DNA of 64,000 bases from assembly GCA_013360465.1 (NCBI GenBank), contig JABWBO010000004.1:1-64000 (forward strand), read 5' to 3'. Origin of the DNA: Anaerolineae bacterium (lineage in GTDB: Bacteria; Chloroflexota; Anaerolineae; Aggregatilineales; Phototrophicaceae). The notes beneath the pieces were generated by a model. It was not told where the DNA came from. It saw nothing but the letters and a program-made list of their open reading frames with translations, and ran no database searches. Made by a program: the position numbers and the translations under genes. The stretch's first letter is position 1. Each line of letters starts with the position of its first letter. Below, piece by piece: positions 45,352 through 52,055 of the stretch.

Positions 45352-47619
45352 TCAGCCAGGCGGTTGAGCGTCAAGCTCCGCCTGCGTCTCGGTAATCACG
45401 TCGGCAAGATGCGTCTGTCCCTCCGGGTCGAGCGCAAGCGCTGCCCGATAGGCGGTGATGGCATCTTCCAGCCGTCCTCCGTCATAAAAGGCGTTCCCCG
45501 CTTCGACCCAAAGCGCCGCGCCCAATGCCGGGAACTCGGTGAAGTCAAACGGGACGCGCGCCTCTTCTTCCGCAAATACCGCCCGGTCATAGACCGCCAG
45601 CGCCCCATCGAGCCGCCCGGTTTCCATCAGCATCTTGCCATATCGAAAATTGGCATAGGCGAGTTCATCCGGCAGGACAATCAGCGGTAGAAGTTCTTCA
45701 TAGGCTGCCGCCGCCGCATCGATGTCGCCCCGCGCACGTGCCGCTTCAACCGTGACCTCCAACAGGCTGCGCTGAATAAGGAGCGCCCGTTCTTCCAGTC
45801 CGGTGAGTTCCAACGCCTGACTGTATCCGGCGCGCGCCCCTTCATAGTCGCCCTCGTAGCGAGCGATCAGCGCCAGGCGCGCCGTCGCCTCCGCAGCCAG
45901 CTCCTTGATGCGCAGATTCGCGCCGTCGTCGTAAAGGCTGATCACCTGCTCGAACTGCGCCCGCGCCCGCGCTGCTGCCTCGGTCTCGCCGGAAAGCATT
46001 CGAATCACTTCGACCTGCCCTACTCCAAACGCGACCTTCGCATCGATATCCGCACTCTCGGGGCTATCCGGCGCGCTGAGGGCGTTCTGGAAAGTCGTCT
46101 CGATAGCATCGAGTGCCCCCGATTCGAGATCGAAGCTGCGAGAAACCCGTGAGGATTCCATTGCCAGCAGATATTCCGCCGTGCCCAACCCGGCATAGGC
46201 GCGTGCATAATCCGGGTTTTCGCCCAGCGCCGCCCGGAAGTCCGCCTCTGCCTGGGCGATCAATTCCGGCAGCCGGCGCACTTCGCGCAGCTCGCTGCCG
46301 CTGAATCCCCGGCTGACGATCAGGTTATAGTTGCCGATGGCGCTGTTCCCCCGCAAAACAAACATGACATCTCTGCCGACCACGTCCTGATTCAGCGAAA
46401 GCGCGGTGCCGAAAGCGCGGCTCGCCGAATCGTAGTTAGCGGTGATCATCTGCACCAGTCCCTGGGTGATGAACGCCAGGACCTGCGAGCGGTTGGAAAG
46501 CTCGCCGCTCAGCGCCCGCGACTGGTCGATATTCCGCGCATACAGCGCCGAAGACAGCCCAAATCGACCATACAGCTCGCTCAATTCGGGCCAGGTATCG
46601 GTCACGTAGAATTCTGGTTGGACCGCTACCCTGCTGCCGGACTCGCTGACCACGCCGTAGACGACGATGTCAGCGCGCGCATTATGGGCTTCTTTCAGCC
46701 GCTGCACTAGCGCTGCCGCGTTCGCTTCGCGCTCTTCCAGCGTCGCCCCAGCCACAGCCCCAACCTGCGCCGGCGACCAGACGCCGACATCGACCGTCAG
46801 ATCGTTCCGCACCGCGTCAAGGCGCTGCACGAAGCTGGTATAAAGCGCTTCCGAAAGCACATGGACATCCGCCTGGGCGATGTCCGAGCCGGGAAGCGCC
46901 GAAAAACCGGCGATGGCGACGTTGAAGCCGTAGTTCTGAATTGGCGCGATAGAGGGTGTAGAGAGGCGTGGCAGCGCAATCAGCGCCGCCGCGATGGCGA
47001 CGAGCATCAATACAAACAGAAACCAGAACGGGCGGATCACCTGATCCATGATGCGCCGCGCCGGGCGCTCCCAGCGCACGATCTGCAAATCAAGATCGTT
47101 GATCAGCGCGCGGCGAAGCTGCTCCTCGTCGTTGAACGTTCGGTACAGACCGCGAAGGGGCGCATCTGGTCCTTCGAAGCGATGAAAGAACTCCTTGACC
47201 AGCGCCATCTGCTGCGGATCCGCGTCCGGCAGCGGCGGAGCAGTACAGCGATACAGCAGCAAGGTCGGGGTTTTGCGCCGCTGATACGATCGATACGCCT
47301 CGTAGAACTCGTACTCCGTTCCGCTCAGGTAGGGTTTGCCGGTATCGGGGTTCATTGCCGAAAGCGGCGTACCCATCCGCGACCACAACATGCAGACCAG
47401 GATGTCGGCATGATGCGGTTGGATCATCTCACGGTTGACGACTTCTTGCGGACCTTCGCCGGTCAGCGCCGGCGCATGTTCCTCATACAGGTAGGGCGAA
47501 AACTTGTAACGGTCACGAATCGTCGGGCGTTCGTTCAACGCACGGACCACATCGGCGACGACCGCGCGTGCTTTGCGCAGGTCGCTCGGCGAAGAGACGA
47601 ACACTTTGACGTTTCTCAT
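45352..47619 (-). CDS. DUF4062 (TIR-like) protein with transmembrane helix and TPR region
   Basis: The 755-residue protein starts with a DUF4062-type domain (about 1-150): VKVFVSSPSDLRKARAVVADVV, DILVCMLWSRMGTP and GTEYEFYEAYRSYQRR. These are the same elements found in TIR-related signalling domains. A membrane helix at about 198-218 (FLFVLMLVAIAAALIALP) follows, then a long second half of about 530 residues rich in Ala/Glu helices with TPR features (NPDYARAYAGLGTAEYLLA, GALAVYDRAVFAEEEA, AITAYRAALALDPEGQ). Topology would place the TPR part outside and the DUF4062 part inside. DUF4062 is often joined to NACHT-type ATPases in defence or signalling proteins; this architecture is unusual. The function is unknown. 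Confidence 0.75.
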   Translation of the reverse strand: MRNVKVFVSSPSDLRKARAVVADVVRALNERPTIRDRYKFSPYLYEEHAPALTGEGPQEVVNREMIQPHHADILVCMLWSRMGTPLSAMNPDTGKPYLSGTEYEFYEAYRSYQRRKTPTLLLYRCTAPPLPDADPQQMALVKEFFHRFEGPDAPLRGLYRTFNDEEQLRRALINDLDLQIVRWERPARRIMDQVIRPFWFLFVLMLVAIAAALIALPRLSTPSIAPIQNYGFNVAIAGFSALPGSDIAQADVHVLSEALYTSFVQRLDAVRNDLTVDVGVWSPAQVGAVAGATLEEREANAAALVQRLKEAHNARADIVVYGVVSESGSRVAVQPEFYVTDTWPELSELYGRFGLSSALYARNIDQSRALSGELSNRSQVLAFITQGLVQMITANYDSASRAFGTALSLNQDVVGRDVMFVLRGNSAIGNYNLIVSRGFSGSELREVRRLPELIAQAEADFRAALGENPDYARAYAGLGTAEYLLAMESSRVSRSFDLESGALDAIETTFQNALSAPDSPESADIDAKVAFGVGQVEVIRMLSGETEAAARARAQFEQVISLYDDGANLRIKELAAEATARLALIARYEGDYEGARAGYSQALELTGLEERALLIQRSLLEVTVEAARARGDIDAAAAAYEELLPLIVLPDELAYANFRYGKMLMETGRLDGALAVYDRAVFAEEEARVPFDFTEFPALGAALWVEAGNAFYDGGRLEDAITAYRAALALDPEGQTHLADVITETQAELDAQPPG

Positions 47620-49577: not shown

Positions 49578-50297
49578 TCATCCTGCCGCTGCCTCCAACG
49601 CCTGACTCAGCGTAAACGCTCCGGTGTACAGCGCCATCCCGATCACCGCGCCGGCGACAATTCGCCCATCTGCAAGACGGCGCACGTCCGTCAAAGTAGC
49701 AACGCCACCGGAAGCGATGACCTTCAACCCCGTATCGACCGCCAGCGCCTCCGTCGCGTTCACGTTGACACCGTCCAGCATGCCGTCTCGGCTGACATCG
49801 GTGAACAGCGCATACTGCACGCCAAATGTCGCCAGCAGCCCGCCCAGCTCCGCCGGCGTCATCGCCGATGGCTGCTGCCAGCCATGCGTCACCACCACCC
49901 CATCACGGGCATCCAGCGCGACGCAAACCGCTTCGCTGCCATGCGCTTCCACCGCCTCGCGCACGATCTCCGGGTTCTGTGCGGCGACGGTGCCCAGGAC
50001 GACCCGCCCCGCACCGGCATCGACCGCCCGACGAATCGCCTTCAGGTCACGCAGCCCGCCGCCGAATTGAACCTTGACGGGTAGCGCCGCGATCTGTTCC
50101 AGAACCCTCAGGTTCTGGTTGCTCTCGCCAAACGCTCCATCCAGATTGACGACATGCAGCCAGCCTGCGCCCTCGTCCAACCAGCGCCGGGCGACATCCC
50201 CCGGGTGATCCGAAAAGACGATCTCCTGGTTCCGGTCGCCCTCGCGCAGGCGAACCACTCGCCCGCCGCTCAGGTCAACCGCCGGATAGATGATCAT
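49578..50297 (-). CDS. hisA: Phosphoribosylformimino-AICAR-phosphate isomerase
   Basis: HisA performs the Amadori rearrangement preceding the HisFH step. The 239-residue barrel has catalytic Asp8 ([15 protein letters not shown]), [42 protein letters not shown], the second Asp in [16 protein letters not shown], and [12 protein letters not shown] then [13 protein letters not shown]. It overlaps hisH by four bases (ATGA), so translation is coupled. Confidence 0.96.
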
Positions 50298-50926
50298 ACT
50301 GCCGCCTCCAGCCTTTCAGTCATCGTCAGAAAATTCGCCAGCAGCCGCAGCCCGGTTTGCTGGCTCTTTTCAGGATGGAACTGCACGCCATAGATATTGT
50401 CGTGGGCGACTCCCGCACAGAAAGGAGCGCCATAATCCGCCGTGATCAGCACATCCTCCGGGTTCGCCGGGACGCAGTAGTAGCTGTGGACGAAATAGGC
50501 ATGCTGCCCCGCTTCGAGGGCTTCAACCAGGGGAGAGGGGCGTGTGACGCACAGGGCATTCCATCCCATGTGCGGCACTTTCAACCCTGGGCGTTCAGGA
50601 AAGCGTGTGACCCGTCCCGGCAGCAGCCCAAAACCGGCATGTTCGCCCATTTCATCGCTGGTCTCGAAAAGGAACTGCATGCCCAGGCAGATACCGAGAT
50701 ACGGTATGCCCAGACGGACTGCATCCTTGATCGGCTGGACGAGGTGCTGTTCGCGCAGTTTCTCCATACACGCGCCAAATGCCCCGACTCCGGGCAAAAT
50801 GATTCGCGTCGCCCCCTTCAGCTCATGGGGCTGCTTCACGATGCGCAGGCTGTCCACCCCCAGGTGCGCCAGCGCGTGTACCACGCTCCGCAGATTGCCC
50901 GCGCCATAATCAACAACTGCCAGCAT
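50294..50926 (-). CDS. hisH: Imidazole glycerol phosphate synthase, glutamine amidotransferase subunit
   Basis: HisH hydrolyses glutamine to feed ammonia to HisF. The 210-residue class I amidotransferase has VVDYGAGNLRSV, ILPGVGAFGACM, the nucleophile Cys80 (PYLGICLGMQFLFE), and the His184/Glu186 pair in GVQFHPEKSQ. The ATG at 50926 is supported by AGGGAG upstream and matches the family start; an extension of eight codons is open but unlikely. It is the first gene of hisH-A-F-I-E. A terminator hairpin sits 29 bases before its start, evidence for attenuation of the whole operon. Confidence 0.96.
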   Translation of the reverse strand: MLAVVDYGAGNLRSVVHALAHLGVDSLRIVKQPHELKGATRIILPGVGAFGACMEKLREQHLVQPIKDAVRLGIPYLGICLGMQFLFETSDEMGEHAGFGLLPGRVTRFPERPGLKVPHMGWNALCVTRPSPLVEALEAGQHAYFVHSYYCVPANPEDVLITADYGAPFCAGVAHDNIYGVQFHPEKSQQTGLRLLANFLTMTERLEAAV

Positions 50927-50955
50927 AGGGCGGCTCCCTTCCGTCTCCAAACAAA

Positions 50956-50979
50956 AAACCCCGCGACGCCGCGGGGTTT
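50956..50979 (-). terminator. Intrinsic terminator in the his leader (attenuator)
   Basis: On the minus strand AAACCCCGCG pairs perfectly with CGCGGGGTTT around a 4-base loop, directly followed by further T residues (six in all). It faces hisH and lies only 29 bases before its start, so it must be bypassed for the operon to be expressed. A 6-base-pair stem (50983-50988 with 51006-51011) precedes it, beginning three bases after the leader peptide stop. Confidence 0.85.
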
Positions 50980-51013
50980 AGGTCTCGTTCATACGGCACA
51001 GCCTGACGAGAAC

Positions 51014-51085
51014 TTACACCAACACGCAGGGCGCGTTTGGCTTATCAGGATAATGCTGATGATAACTGCTCATAGAGAAGTCCAT
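51014..51085 (-). CDS. Candidate his leader peptide (leaderless, 23 codons)
   Basis: The reading frame begins MDFSMSSYHQHYPDK and ends with a TAA two bases before the pre-terminator stem. Its ATG lies seven bases after a TAAAAT -10 box, where transcription should begin, so it would be translated without a leader. The YHQHYPD stretch has two histidine codons separated by Gln and recalls the HHHPD end of the E. coli his leader peptide. Ribosome stalling at these codons could change folding of the downstream RNA. The two-His count is low for attenuation, so the role is inferred from position. Confidence 0.6.
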   Translation of the reverse strand: MDFSMSSYHQHYPDKPNAPCVLV

Positions 51086-51092
51086 GCCGCGC

Positions 51093-51121
51093 ATTTTAGC
51101 CGCTTCGCAGATGGAAGTCAA
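51093..51121 (-). promoter_or_regulatory. Sigma70-type promoter of the his operon
   Basis: On the minus strand TTGACT (51121-51116) and TAAAAT (51098-51093) are exactly 17 bases apart. The expected start is at 51086-51085, at the leader peptide ATG. Confidence 0.75.
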
Positions 51122-51172
51122 CCAGACGGACGGACTGCATCTTCGACGGCGTGCTGCATACATGCGGACTTT

Positions 51173-51181
51173 CGCTATAAT
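51173..51181 (+). promoter_or_regulatory. CGCTATAAT promoter for the SAM adenosyltransferase-murA genes
   Basis: TATAAT is at 51176-51181, preceded by CGC. It gives a leader of about 28 nt and is divergent from the his promoter some 55 bases away. Confidence 0.55.
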
Positions 51182-51215
51182 GGCGTCGGCATAGTAGGGT
51201 TTTGGAGCGCGCCAT

Positions 51216-52055
51216 ATGCGCAGGACAATTGCGCTGCTGACAGACTTTGGCTTGCGAGACTCATTTGTCGGCGTGATGAAGGGCGTCATCGCCCGCATCT
51301 CCCCGGAAGCCAATGTCATCGACATCTCCCACGCCGCGCCGGCGCAGGATGTCCGCGCCGGCGCGCTGATGCTTCTTGCCAGCTATCGCCATTTTCCGAC
51401 AGACGCCATTTTCGTGGCGGTGGTCGATCCCGGCGTGGGCGGCGCGCGCCGTCCTATGGCTGTGCGCGCAGGGCAGCAGGTCTTCATCGCGCCCGATAAC
51501 GGCATCCTGTCCTATGTCCTGCAGGAGAACCAGGCGCTTGAGCCAAGGCTGCTGGATAACCCTGCATTTCACCTCCCACAGGTCAGCAATACGTTTCATG
51601 GGCGTGACATCTTCGCCCCGACTGCTGCGCACCTGGCATCCGGGGCAGCCTTTGAAGATCTCGGTTCGCCGCTGACCCACTGGCATCTGCTGGAAGCGCC
51701 GGTACTCAGCGCCGAAGGGGACCGCCTGCGCGGCGAGGTGCTGCATATCGACCATTTTGGCAACGTCATGACCAGCATCGGGCGCTTCGAGTGGCTGGAA
51801 GACGATCATCTGCGGCTCGAACCGGCGTTCGGCGCAGCCCTGCCGGCGCGCGTTTCCCTGGCACGGCGCTGCGCCCTGACCATCAGCGACACGCATCTCG
51901 ACGGCGTGCGCCGAACTTACGGCGAAGCCTATCCTGGCGCAGCGCTGGCGCTGATCGGCAGCAGCGGTTTTCTGGAACTCTCCATCAACCTGGGCAGCTT
52001 CGCCGAAGTGTTCGATGTCCACACCGGCGATTCTGTCATCCTTGAAGCGGGGTAA
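51216..52055 (+). CDS. SAM hydroxide adenosyltransferase (DUF62 family)
   Basis: The 279-residue protein matches the fluorinase/DUF62 family, which uses water or halide to cleave SAM to adenosine (or 5'-haloadenosine) and methionine. N-terminal IALLTDFGLRDSFVGVMKGVI, VVDPGVGG, FIAPDNGILSYVL, and NTFHGRDIFAPTAAHLA (catalytic Arg and Asp) are characteristic, as is the C-terminal IDHFGNVMTSI. The family-typical Asp-Arg-His water-activating triad appears intact, so hydrolysis rather than halogenation is expected. murA starts four bases after the stop. The link between the two is not obvious. Confidence 0.94.
   Translation: MRRTIALLTDFGLRDSFVGVMKGVIARISPEANVIDISHAAPAQDVRAGALMLLASYRHFPTDAIFVAVVDPGVGGARRPMAVRAGQQVFIAPDNGILSYVLQENQALEPRLLDNPAFHLPQVSNTFHGRDIFAPTAAHLASGAAFEDLGSPLTHWHLLEAPVLSAEGDRLRGEVLHIDHFGNVMTSIGRFEWLEDDHLRLEPAFGAALPARVSLARRCALTISDTHLDGVRRTYGEAYPGAALALIGSSGFLELSINLGSFAEVFDVHTGDSVILEAG

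What the first reader, a model, noticed from the sequence alone, without database searches (positions are those of the whole stretch)
50926..51121. Minimal his attenuator with a leaderless leader peptide
A perfect-spacing promoter (TTGACT-17-TAAAAT) starts transcription at the ATG of a 23-codon peptide containing HQHYPD, its stop is two bases from a 6-base-pair stem, and a perfect 10-base-pair terminator with six T follows, 29 bases before hisH. All parts of ribosome-mediated attenuation are present within about 160 bases, but with only two His codons and no 5' leader. Attenuation starting from a leaderless mRNA would be distinctive.
Basis: partly seen in the sequence, partly recalled or inferred. 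Interest (0 to 1): 0.75.

Follow-up and report, generated by a model that had tools for sequence, protein, structure and literature searches.

The report
Leaderless histidine attenuator before hisH
A short RNA switch in front of histidine-making genes of an uncultured, probably Chloroflexota, bacterium probably senses histidine through a tiny peptide whose mRNA appears to begin at its own start codon, and many relatives in its order carry the same kind of switch.

Summary
Confirmed. In 369 kb of this genome the combination occurs only here.

Comparison supports ribosome-mediated his attenuation. Upstream of hisH, 84 of 88 family members have a short His-rich ORF (79 with promoter), against 4 of 50 elsewhere in the order and 6.4 of 88 when shuffled. 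His codons peak 13 codons before the stop. Computed folding pairs the last codons with the terminator arm while a ribosome waits there and loses this by codon -6; swapping arms between genera weakens it. The window itself is a weak case in this model.

Leaderless start is supported: ATG exactly 7 nt after the -10 in 12 of 82 family leaders (8 genera) and 20 of 29 hisG leaders in other families. Other relatives have longer 5' UTRs; parsimony counts four changes.

Leaderless attenuators have precedents, so this is a new variant of a known kind. Function is not measured.

The parts
51116..51121 (-). -35 element TTGACT
   Evidence: most relatives have TTGACA at the same place
51093..51098 (-). -10 element TAAAAT, spacer 17
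   Evidence: most relatives have TATACT
51085..51085 (-). inferred transcription start = A of the leader ATG (leaderless), with a pyrimidine just before it
   Evidence: 7 nt after the -10; same spacing in 12 of 82 family leaders and 20 of 29 hisG leaders of other families; not measured
51014..51085 (-). leader peptide ORF, 23 codons + TAA, MDFSMSSYHQHYPDKPNAPCVLV
   Evidence: G028 has MDIYMSSYHQHHPDKPNAIRVLV
51053..51061 (-). regulatory codons CAT CAG CAT, His at -15 and -13 from the stop
   Evidence: family His codons peak at -13
51042..51065 (-). possible helix 1: TTATCA 51065-51060 with TGATAA 51047-51042, around the His codons
   Evidence: read from sequence; a different 5-bp helix in the same place in the MFE
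51021..51037 (-). helix 2: AACGCGC 51037-51031 with GCGTGTT 51027-51021, holds the antiterminator 5' side until opened by a ribosome on or just past the His codons
   Evidence: a shifted hairpin in G028
51018..51027 (-). proposed antiterminator 5' side GCGTGTTGGT inside the last codons, counterpart of the family's CGGTGTTGG
   Evidence: region gives -13.4 kcal/mol with the terminator 5' arm; codon scan
50983..51011 (-). 6-bp stem TCTCGT 51011-51006 / ACGAGA 50988-50983 between stop and terminator
   Evidence: does not vary in G028 apart from the first base, so untested
50953..50979 (-). intrinsic terminator, 10-bp stem, loop GCGT, six T
   Evidence: terminators in the same place in family leaders
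50934..50940 (-). Shine-Dalgarno-like AAGGGAG of hisH
   Evidence: read from sequence
50294..50926 (-). hisH
   Evidence: TIGR01855
49578..50297 (-). hisA
   Evidence: TIGR00007
48752..49531 (-). hisF
   Evidence: TIGR00735
48390..48767 (-). hisI, phosphoribosyl-AMP cyclohydrolase
   Evidence: NF000768

Best explanation
It is a ribosome-mediated transcription attenuator of the hisH-hisA-hisF-hisI operon. RNA polymerase starts at, or within a nucleotide of, the A of the leader ATG, so the nascent RNA is a leaderless mRNA and a ribosome loads on its 5' end (inferred). With enough His-tRNA the ribosome runs to the stop codon and covers the last codons of the ORF; the terminator forms and transcription ends before hisH (inferred). 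When His-tRNA is short the ribosome waits at the CAT codons; the last codons (GCGUGUUGGU) are free and pair with the 5' arm and loop of the terminator, so transcription continues (inferred; the pairing competition is computed). In the window a small hairpin (helix 2) also sits on the antiterminator side and has to be opened by the waiting ribosome. Shown: the sequence parts, their recurrence in relatives, and genome-specific complementarity across the family. Not shown: the RNA ends, translation of the ORF, response to histidine.
For: Family survey: 91 of 98 genomes have a hisH hit; 88 upstream regions read. By one fixed rule 84 of 88 have a short ORF with HH or HxH (79 with promoter), against 4 of 50 hisH loci mostly from other families of the order (0 with promoter) and 6.4 of 88 after shuffling; with three clustered His, 71 of 88, 0 of 50 and 0.8. 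His codons cluster at -16 to -10 from the stop, peak -13. Own antiterminator:terminator duplex -12.9 kcal/mol on average against -9.9 and -9.6 with partners from other genera; own stronger than both swap means in 64 of 81 leaders; one leader per genus, 7 of 2000 draws as good. A masked ribosome on the first His codon gives stronger capture of the terminator arm than one on the stop in 60 of 81, about equal in 12, weaker in 9. Codon scan, 76-79 leaders: mean 4.95-5.75 kcal/mol at codons -20 to -10, 2.7-3.2 at -7 to 0, 3.7 without ribosome. With swapped arms the His-minus-stop difference is 0.76 against 2.48, p 3e-9 over 79 leaders; genus means p 0.003, own larger in 13 of 16. Leaderless: ATG at 7 in 12 of 82, 12 of 12 in frame, 8 of 18 genera; 0 of 2000 shuffles reach 12; pyrimidine before that ATG in 12 of 12, against 33 of 70 at the same place in the other leaders, and in 20 of 20 hisG leaders; ATG at 7 in 20 of 29 hisG leaders of other families. 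No second such place in 369 kb.
Against: In the window the fold model is weak at the His codons: 2.4-2.7 kcal/mol with a 12-nt footprint, strong only at codons -12 to -8; it reaches the His codon at -13 only with a footprint of 15 nt or more. In one search capture was no better at the first His codon than at the stop in the window (2.8 against 3.2) and worse in G028 (1.1 against 5.8). Only two His codons, with Gln between. 9 of 81 leaders go the wrong way; in three genera (g16, g18, g23) swapped arms do as well or better. A second ATG 12 nt downstream could be the start. In this genome 237 ORFs taken as genes show no clear excess of leaderless spacing (0 at promoter score 10, 2 at score 9); the sample is small. 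The duplex that scores -13.4 extends beyond GCGUGUUGGU and has mismatches.
Confidence: 0.85

Rival explanations
1. A his attenuator, but not leaderless: transcription starts a few nucleotides upstream or translation starts at the second ATG (51073), so the ORF has a short 5' UTR.
For: Second in-frame ATG at 19 in window, G028 and L039. 64 of 82 family leaders have no ATG/GTG at 6-8 but one more than 12 nt after the -10, with somewhat better Shine-Dalgarno energy (-5.8) than shuffles (-4.5). Leaders of family f8 mostly have ATG at 9-13 (one at 7 by eye).
Against: No good Shine-Dalgarno before the window's second ATG (-3.0 kcal/mol). ATG at 7 in many genera, with a pyrimidine before it. L021, L024, L040, L045 and L053 have no other in-frame ATG/GTG before their His codons.
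Confidence: 0.15
2. A plain constitutive terminator or a small RNA between the divergent genes; the ORF is chance.
For: The terminator alone is within chance; only two His codons.
Against: His-rich ORF in 84 of 88 family regions against 6.4 shuffled; His codons at a set distance from the stop; genome-specific antiterminator.
Confidence: 0.04
3. Translational rather than transcriptional control: the leader RNA folds over the hisH ribosome-binding site.
For: A fold begun 5 nt upstream of the inferred start pairs GCGGC with GCCGC near the hisH start.
Against: Those GCGGC bases lie upstream of the inferred start, so would not be in the RNA; a terminator with six T precedes the site and relatives keep that layout.
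Confidence: 0.04
4. A factor other than the ribosome (T-box tRNA binding, HisR-type repressor) controls the operon.
For: Both are known for his genes in Firmicutes (PMC9413887, passages).
Against: No T-box among Rfam matches up to E 1 in 50000-52000 and no Rfam match up to E 0.1 in 20 of the 88 family regions; the His-rich ORF explains the anatomy. A repressor site was not looked for.
Confidence: 0.02

Closest known systems
Enterobacterial his operon attenuator (Rfam RF00514, His_leader)
   Same: His-codon leader peptide, alternative hairpins, intrinsic terminator, his genes downstream (general knowledge, and PMC9413887 passages)
   Different: RF00514 gives 24.4 bits against a gathering score of 49 and no match up to E 0.1 in 20 relatives; here two His codons, antiterminator side inside the last codons, ORF at the inferred 5' end
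Sinorhizobium meliloti trpL attenuator
   Same: attenuator RNA begins with the ATG of the leader ORF (PMC7298713, passages)
   Different: tryptophan, an alphaproteobacterium; here histidine and, by record titles, Chloroflexota, with both start types inside one family
Mycobacterial poly-Cys leaderless short ORFs
   Same: short upstream ORF with codons of the regulated amino acid, leaderless by title (PMC4633059, passages; Canestrari 2020 seen only as a reference-list title)
   Different: cysteine; a citing paper calls it translation attenuation
Firmicutes his attenuators (Bacillus cereus group, Eubacteriales, Erysipelotrichales)
   Same: short peptides with three to five His codons in a row, terminator and antiterminator upstream of his operons (PMC9413887, passages)
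   Different: another phylum; a leaderless start is not mentioned in the passages I saw
M. tuberculosis ilvB1 attenuator
   Same: ribosome at the stop codon masks the antiterminator directly (PMC13236596, passages)
   Different: branched-chain amino acids, 166-nt leader

Membership tests
ribosome-mediated amino-acid attenuator | short leader ORF with codons of the pathway's amino acid | tested here: met
ribosome-mediated amino-acid attenuator | intrinsic terminator between ORF and first gene | tested here: met
   relatives
ribosome-mediated amino-acid attenuator | mutually exclusive antiterminator governed by ribosome position | tested here: inconclusive
   family: supported by codon scan and swaps; window: productive codons -12 to -8, next to the His codon at -13, footprint-dependent
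ribosome-mediated amino-acid attenuator | termination responds to charged His-tRNA | not testable with these tools
   no expression data
Rfam RF00514 His_leader | covariance-model score above gathering (49 bits) | tested here: not met
   24.4 bits
leaderless mRNA | start codon at the transcription start | tested here: inconclusive
   7-nt spacing after the -10, pyrimidine before ATG, weak SD, spacing shared with relatives; 5' end not measured
T-box riboswitch | Rfam T-box match | tested here: not met
   no T-box match up to E 1

The most novel reading that the evidence does not exclude
In this order, leaderless initiation is the prevailing form of histidine attenuation in several families: promoter and leader ORF are fused so that the first transcribed base is the first base of the start codon, a ribosome loads on the bare 5' end as it leaves the polymerase, and the antiterminator is written into the last codons so that translation through the ORF erases it without needing a separate protector hairpin. 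Lineages have switched repeatedly between this and a Shine-Dalgarno-led form while keeping the rest.
Probability: 0.5. Interest if true: 0.7.

Novelty: new variant of a known kind. Interest (0 to 1): 0.55.

Why it matters
Classical attenuation needs a ribosome to load soon after RNA polymerase starts. A leaderless leader ORF does away with the 5' UTR and Shine-Dalgarno step, so the timing of coupling must be set some other way. Sister genera that carry the same his switch in leaderless and longer-UTR form are a natural set for asking how start mode changes attenuation. It also extends His-peptide attenuation to a phylum for which my searches listed no report (paper searches; passages; most subscription papers are not held).

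Tried and rejected
Rfam: only sub-threshold matches, so no filing under RF00514. Plus strand: a sub-threshold isrJ match over the mirror of the terminator, set aside. Folds without a ribosome favour helix 2 and the 6-bp stem and say little about the switch. A reversed reading, in which the ribosome at the stop frees GCUGUG to pair with CGCGGC of the terminator (MFE for the window, a like pairing in G028), would raise read-through when histidine is plentiful; I hold it unlikely but not excluded. His leaders before hisG or hisD of this genome: none within 450 nt. Genome-wide leaderless usage in 237 ORFs: no clear excess, small sample. A covariance model was not built; by eye the leaders differ too much outside the terminator.

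Rows dropped before counts. Of 89 strong hisH hits, G003 was not fetched (gene 86 bases from a contig end), leaving 88. Six of these were dropped: L012 and L052 (no ORF by my rule), L025 (weak promoter), L034 and L042 (no promoter), L084 (masked). By eye L012 has an ATG 6 nt after the -10 and one His codon. L023 has no terminator by my rule (81). L040 and L061 were left out of the codon scan and the arm-swap folding (79), because their antiterminator side seems to lie after the stop. The codons compared were chosen. For the start-codon comparison (13 of 13 ATG against 39 ATG and 25 GTG of 64, Fisher p 0.007) I left out L015 (GTG at 6, also ATG at 30) and L068 (ATG at 7, also GTG at 28 with a better SD), and three leaders had neither start type (L011, L055, L065); kinship is not corrected there. 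L089 was kept and goes against the model. The rule differs from that, hence 84 or 79 against 82. The tree used 50 family rows (of 88) and 3 outgroup rows; 5 rows of unclear start type were not counted in the four changes but count as 'others' in the one-clade test.

Errors of my own: fifteen loci were read in the wrong orientation; mended from then on. One search failed on a thread setting; the tree was made.

Full report
What is there. The leader lies on the minus strand between hisH and a divergent gene whose best NCBIfam matches are (R)-S-adenosyl-L-methionine hydrolases, below their cut-offs (51216-52055). Promoter TTGACT-17-TAAAAT, ATG 7 nt after the -10, a 23-codon ORF with CAT CAG CAT, TAA, a 6-bp stem, a 10-bp terminator with six T, then hisH after 29 nt. 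The genes run hisH-hisA-hisF-hisI. The genome (5.93 Mb, 256 contigs) is unnamed. Contigs of four family members have the same lengths as public records titled Chloroflexi, Chloroflexota, Anaerolineaceae and, probably mislabelled, Pleurocapsa minor, so I take it to be an uncultured Chloroflexota; no tool gives the family's name.

Recurrence in the family. hisH was found in 91 of 98 genomes. I read 88 upstream regions; in 82 a promoter and an ORF with near His codons passed my rules. By a second, fixed rule 84 of 88 have a short ORF with HH or HxH and 79 of these a TTGAC...TAnnnT promoter; among 50 hisH loci of the order (49 from other families, one paralogue) 4 have such an ORF and none the promoter; shuffled family regions give 6.4 of 88. 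Typical leaders carry TTGACA-17-TATACT, three to five His codons, a last part reading CGGTGTTGG (VLA or VLV, then stop) and a terminator CCCCGCACCnnGCGGGG. Genus g22 mostly has other letters in both places.

How the switch could work. The last codons are complementary to the terminator's 5' arm and loop. The pairs differ between genomes and stay matched: CAGGUG with CACCUG in L008, AAGGUG with CACCUU in L007, CUGGUGC with GCGCCAG in L009 (by eye; L007 does not beat swaps). Own partners give -12.9 kcal/mol against -9.9 and -9.6 with partners from other genera; own is stronger than both swap means in 64 of 81 leaders; with one leader per genus 7 of 2000 shuffled draws were as good. Folding the transcript up to the terminator's 3' arm with a masked ribosome shows capture of the arm while the ribosome waits 20 to 10 codons before the stop, falling between -10 and -6. 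The His codons sit there: peak at -13. With arms swapped between genera the difference between waiting near His and near the stop falls from 2.48 to 0.76 kcal/mol (79 leaders, p 3e-9; 13 of 16 genus means, p 0.003). So in most members the ribosome itself, rather than a protector hairpin, may remove the antiterminator.

The window in detail. It fits the family pattern but is a weak case. Its best duplex is -13.4 kcal/mol, as strong or stronger in only 3% of arm swaps and 16% of leader swaps, but it has mismatches. Helix 2 covers the antiterminator side, and the scan gives strong capture only at codons -12 to -8, just after the His codon at -13, unless the footprint reaches 15 nt. G028, the one close relative found (91% identity in HisH), has a third His codon at -12 and a like trend, but also capture at the stop. 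The 6-bp stem hardly varies between the two.

Leaderless start. Among 82 leaders an ATG lies exactly 7 nt after the -10 in 12, all 12 in frame with the His codons, in 8 of 18 genera; shuffling the first 24 nt gave 1.4 on average and never 12 in 2000. One of the 12 (L068) has another likely start. The base before these ATGs is C or T in 12 of 12, against 33 of 70 at the same place in the others, as expected for transcription starting at the A. A second group begins mostly 20-35 nt after the -10. Start codons: 13 of 13 ATG in the clear leaderless group, 39 ATG and 25 GTG in 64 others (p 0.007, not corrected for kinship). On a HisH-HisA-HisF tree of 53 rows the leaderless rows do not form one clade (AU p 0.002) and parsimony counts 4 changes with unclear rows left out; 20 of 50 inner branches are weakly supported.

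Beyond the family. Other families of the order have a His leader before hisG in 31 of 51 loci examined (within 380 nt). Of the 29 with a promoter by my rule, 20 have ATG at 7 (15 in family f2; 5 near-alike in f4), 5 at 9, one each at 10, 13 and 26, and one GTG at 31. In the 20 the preceding base is C (18) or T (2). Two f3 genomes have a His-rich ORF before hisD, by eye with a longer 5' UTR. Family f7 has none before hisG (0 of 11). The codon scan on the 20 also peaks upstream of the stop (7.1 at -14, 4.0-4.6 at -5 to 0), less sharply; many of their His codons lie further upstream, around -18, where the mean is about 5.

What is known. Rfam does not hold it. A 2010 survey says that leader-peptide systems had not been shown outside Proteobacteria and Actinobacteria, and adds bacilli (PMC2965389, passages). 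[quoted passage not shown] Firmicutes his attenuators were reported in 2022 (PMC9413887, passages). A leaderless attenuator ORF exists in Sinorhizobium (PMC7298713, passages) and, from a cited title and an earlier paper's passages, in mycobacteria. Leaderless genes were detected in 4 of 12 Chloroflexi genomes, 4.7% of genes on average there (PMC3160421, passages). Paper searches listed no report of his attenuation in Chloroflexota; I saw listings of 15 of 19 and 12 of 17 hits.

Verdict. Very likely a his attenuator, likely leaderless, and one of a set that reaches across several families of its order. The kind is known; the combination and its repeated change of start mode are new as far as my searches go. 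Everything about function is inferred from sequence.

Noticed in passing
family leaders, e.g. L004, L006, L020, L028, L030: CCGTCACG or a close form follows the stop codon in many leaders (by eye); it can pair in part with CGGT of the antiterminator side, but its role is unexplained.
   Followed up: no
L239 and L218 (own genome, contig C189): hisG follows an ORF that may be hisZ (not searched) and hisD lies nearby on the other strand; neither has a His leader within 450 nt, so the his genes of this genome look split into differently controlled units.
   Followed up: partly
L295 (G025, second hisH-like gene): A hisH paralogue (38% identity to the window's) without leader by my rule.
   Followed up: no
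L090, record JAHHHY010000001.1: A record titled Pleurocapsa minor has the contig length of G029:C22 and a hisH of this family: probably a mislabelled Chloroflexota MAG.
   Followed up: no
L235, L236, L359-L366, L369 (family f7): Family f7 has hisG without a His leader (0 of 11 within 380 nt), so the switch was lost or lies elsewhere there.
   Followed up: no
window 45352-47619 (-): 755-aa ORF downstream of hisI without an NCBIfam match.
   Followed up: no
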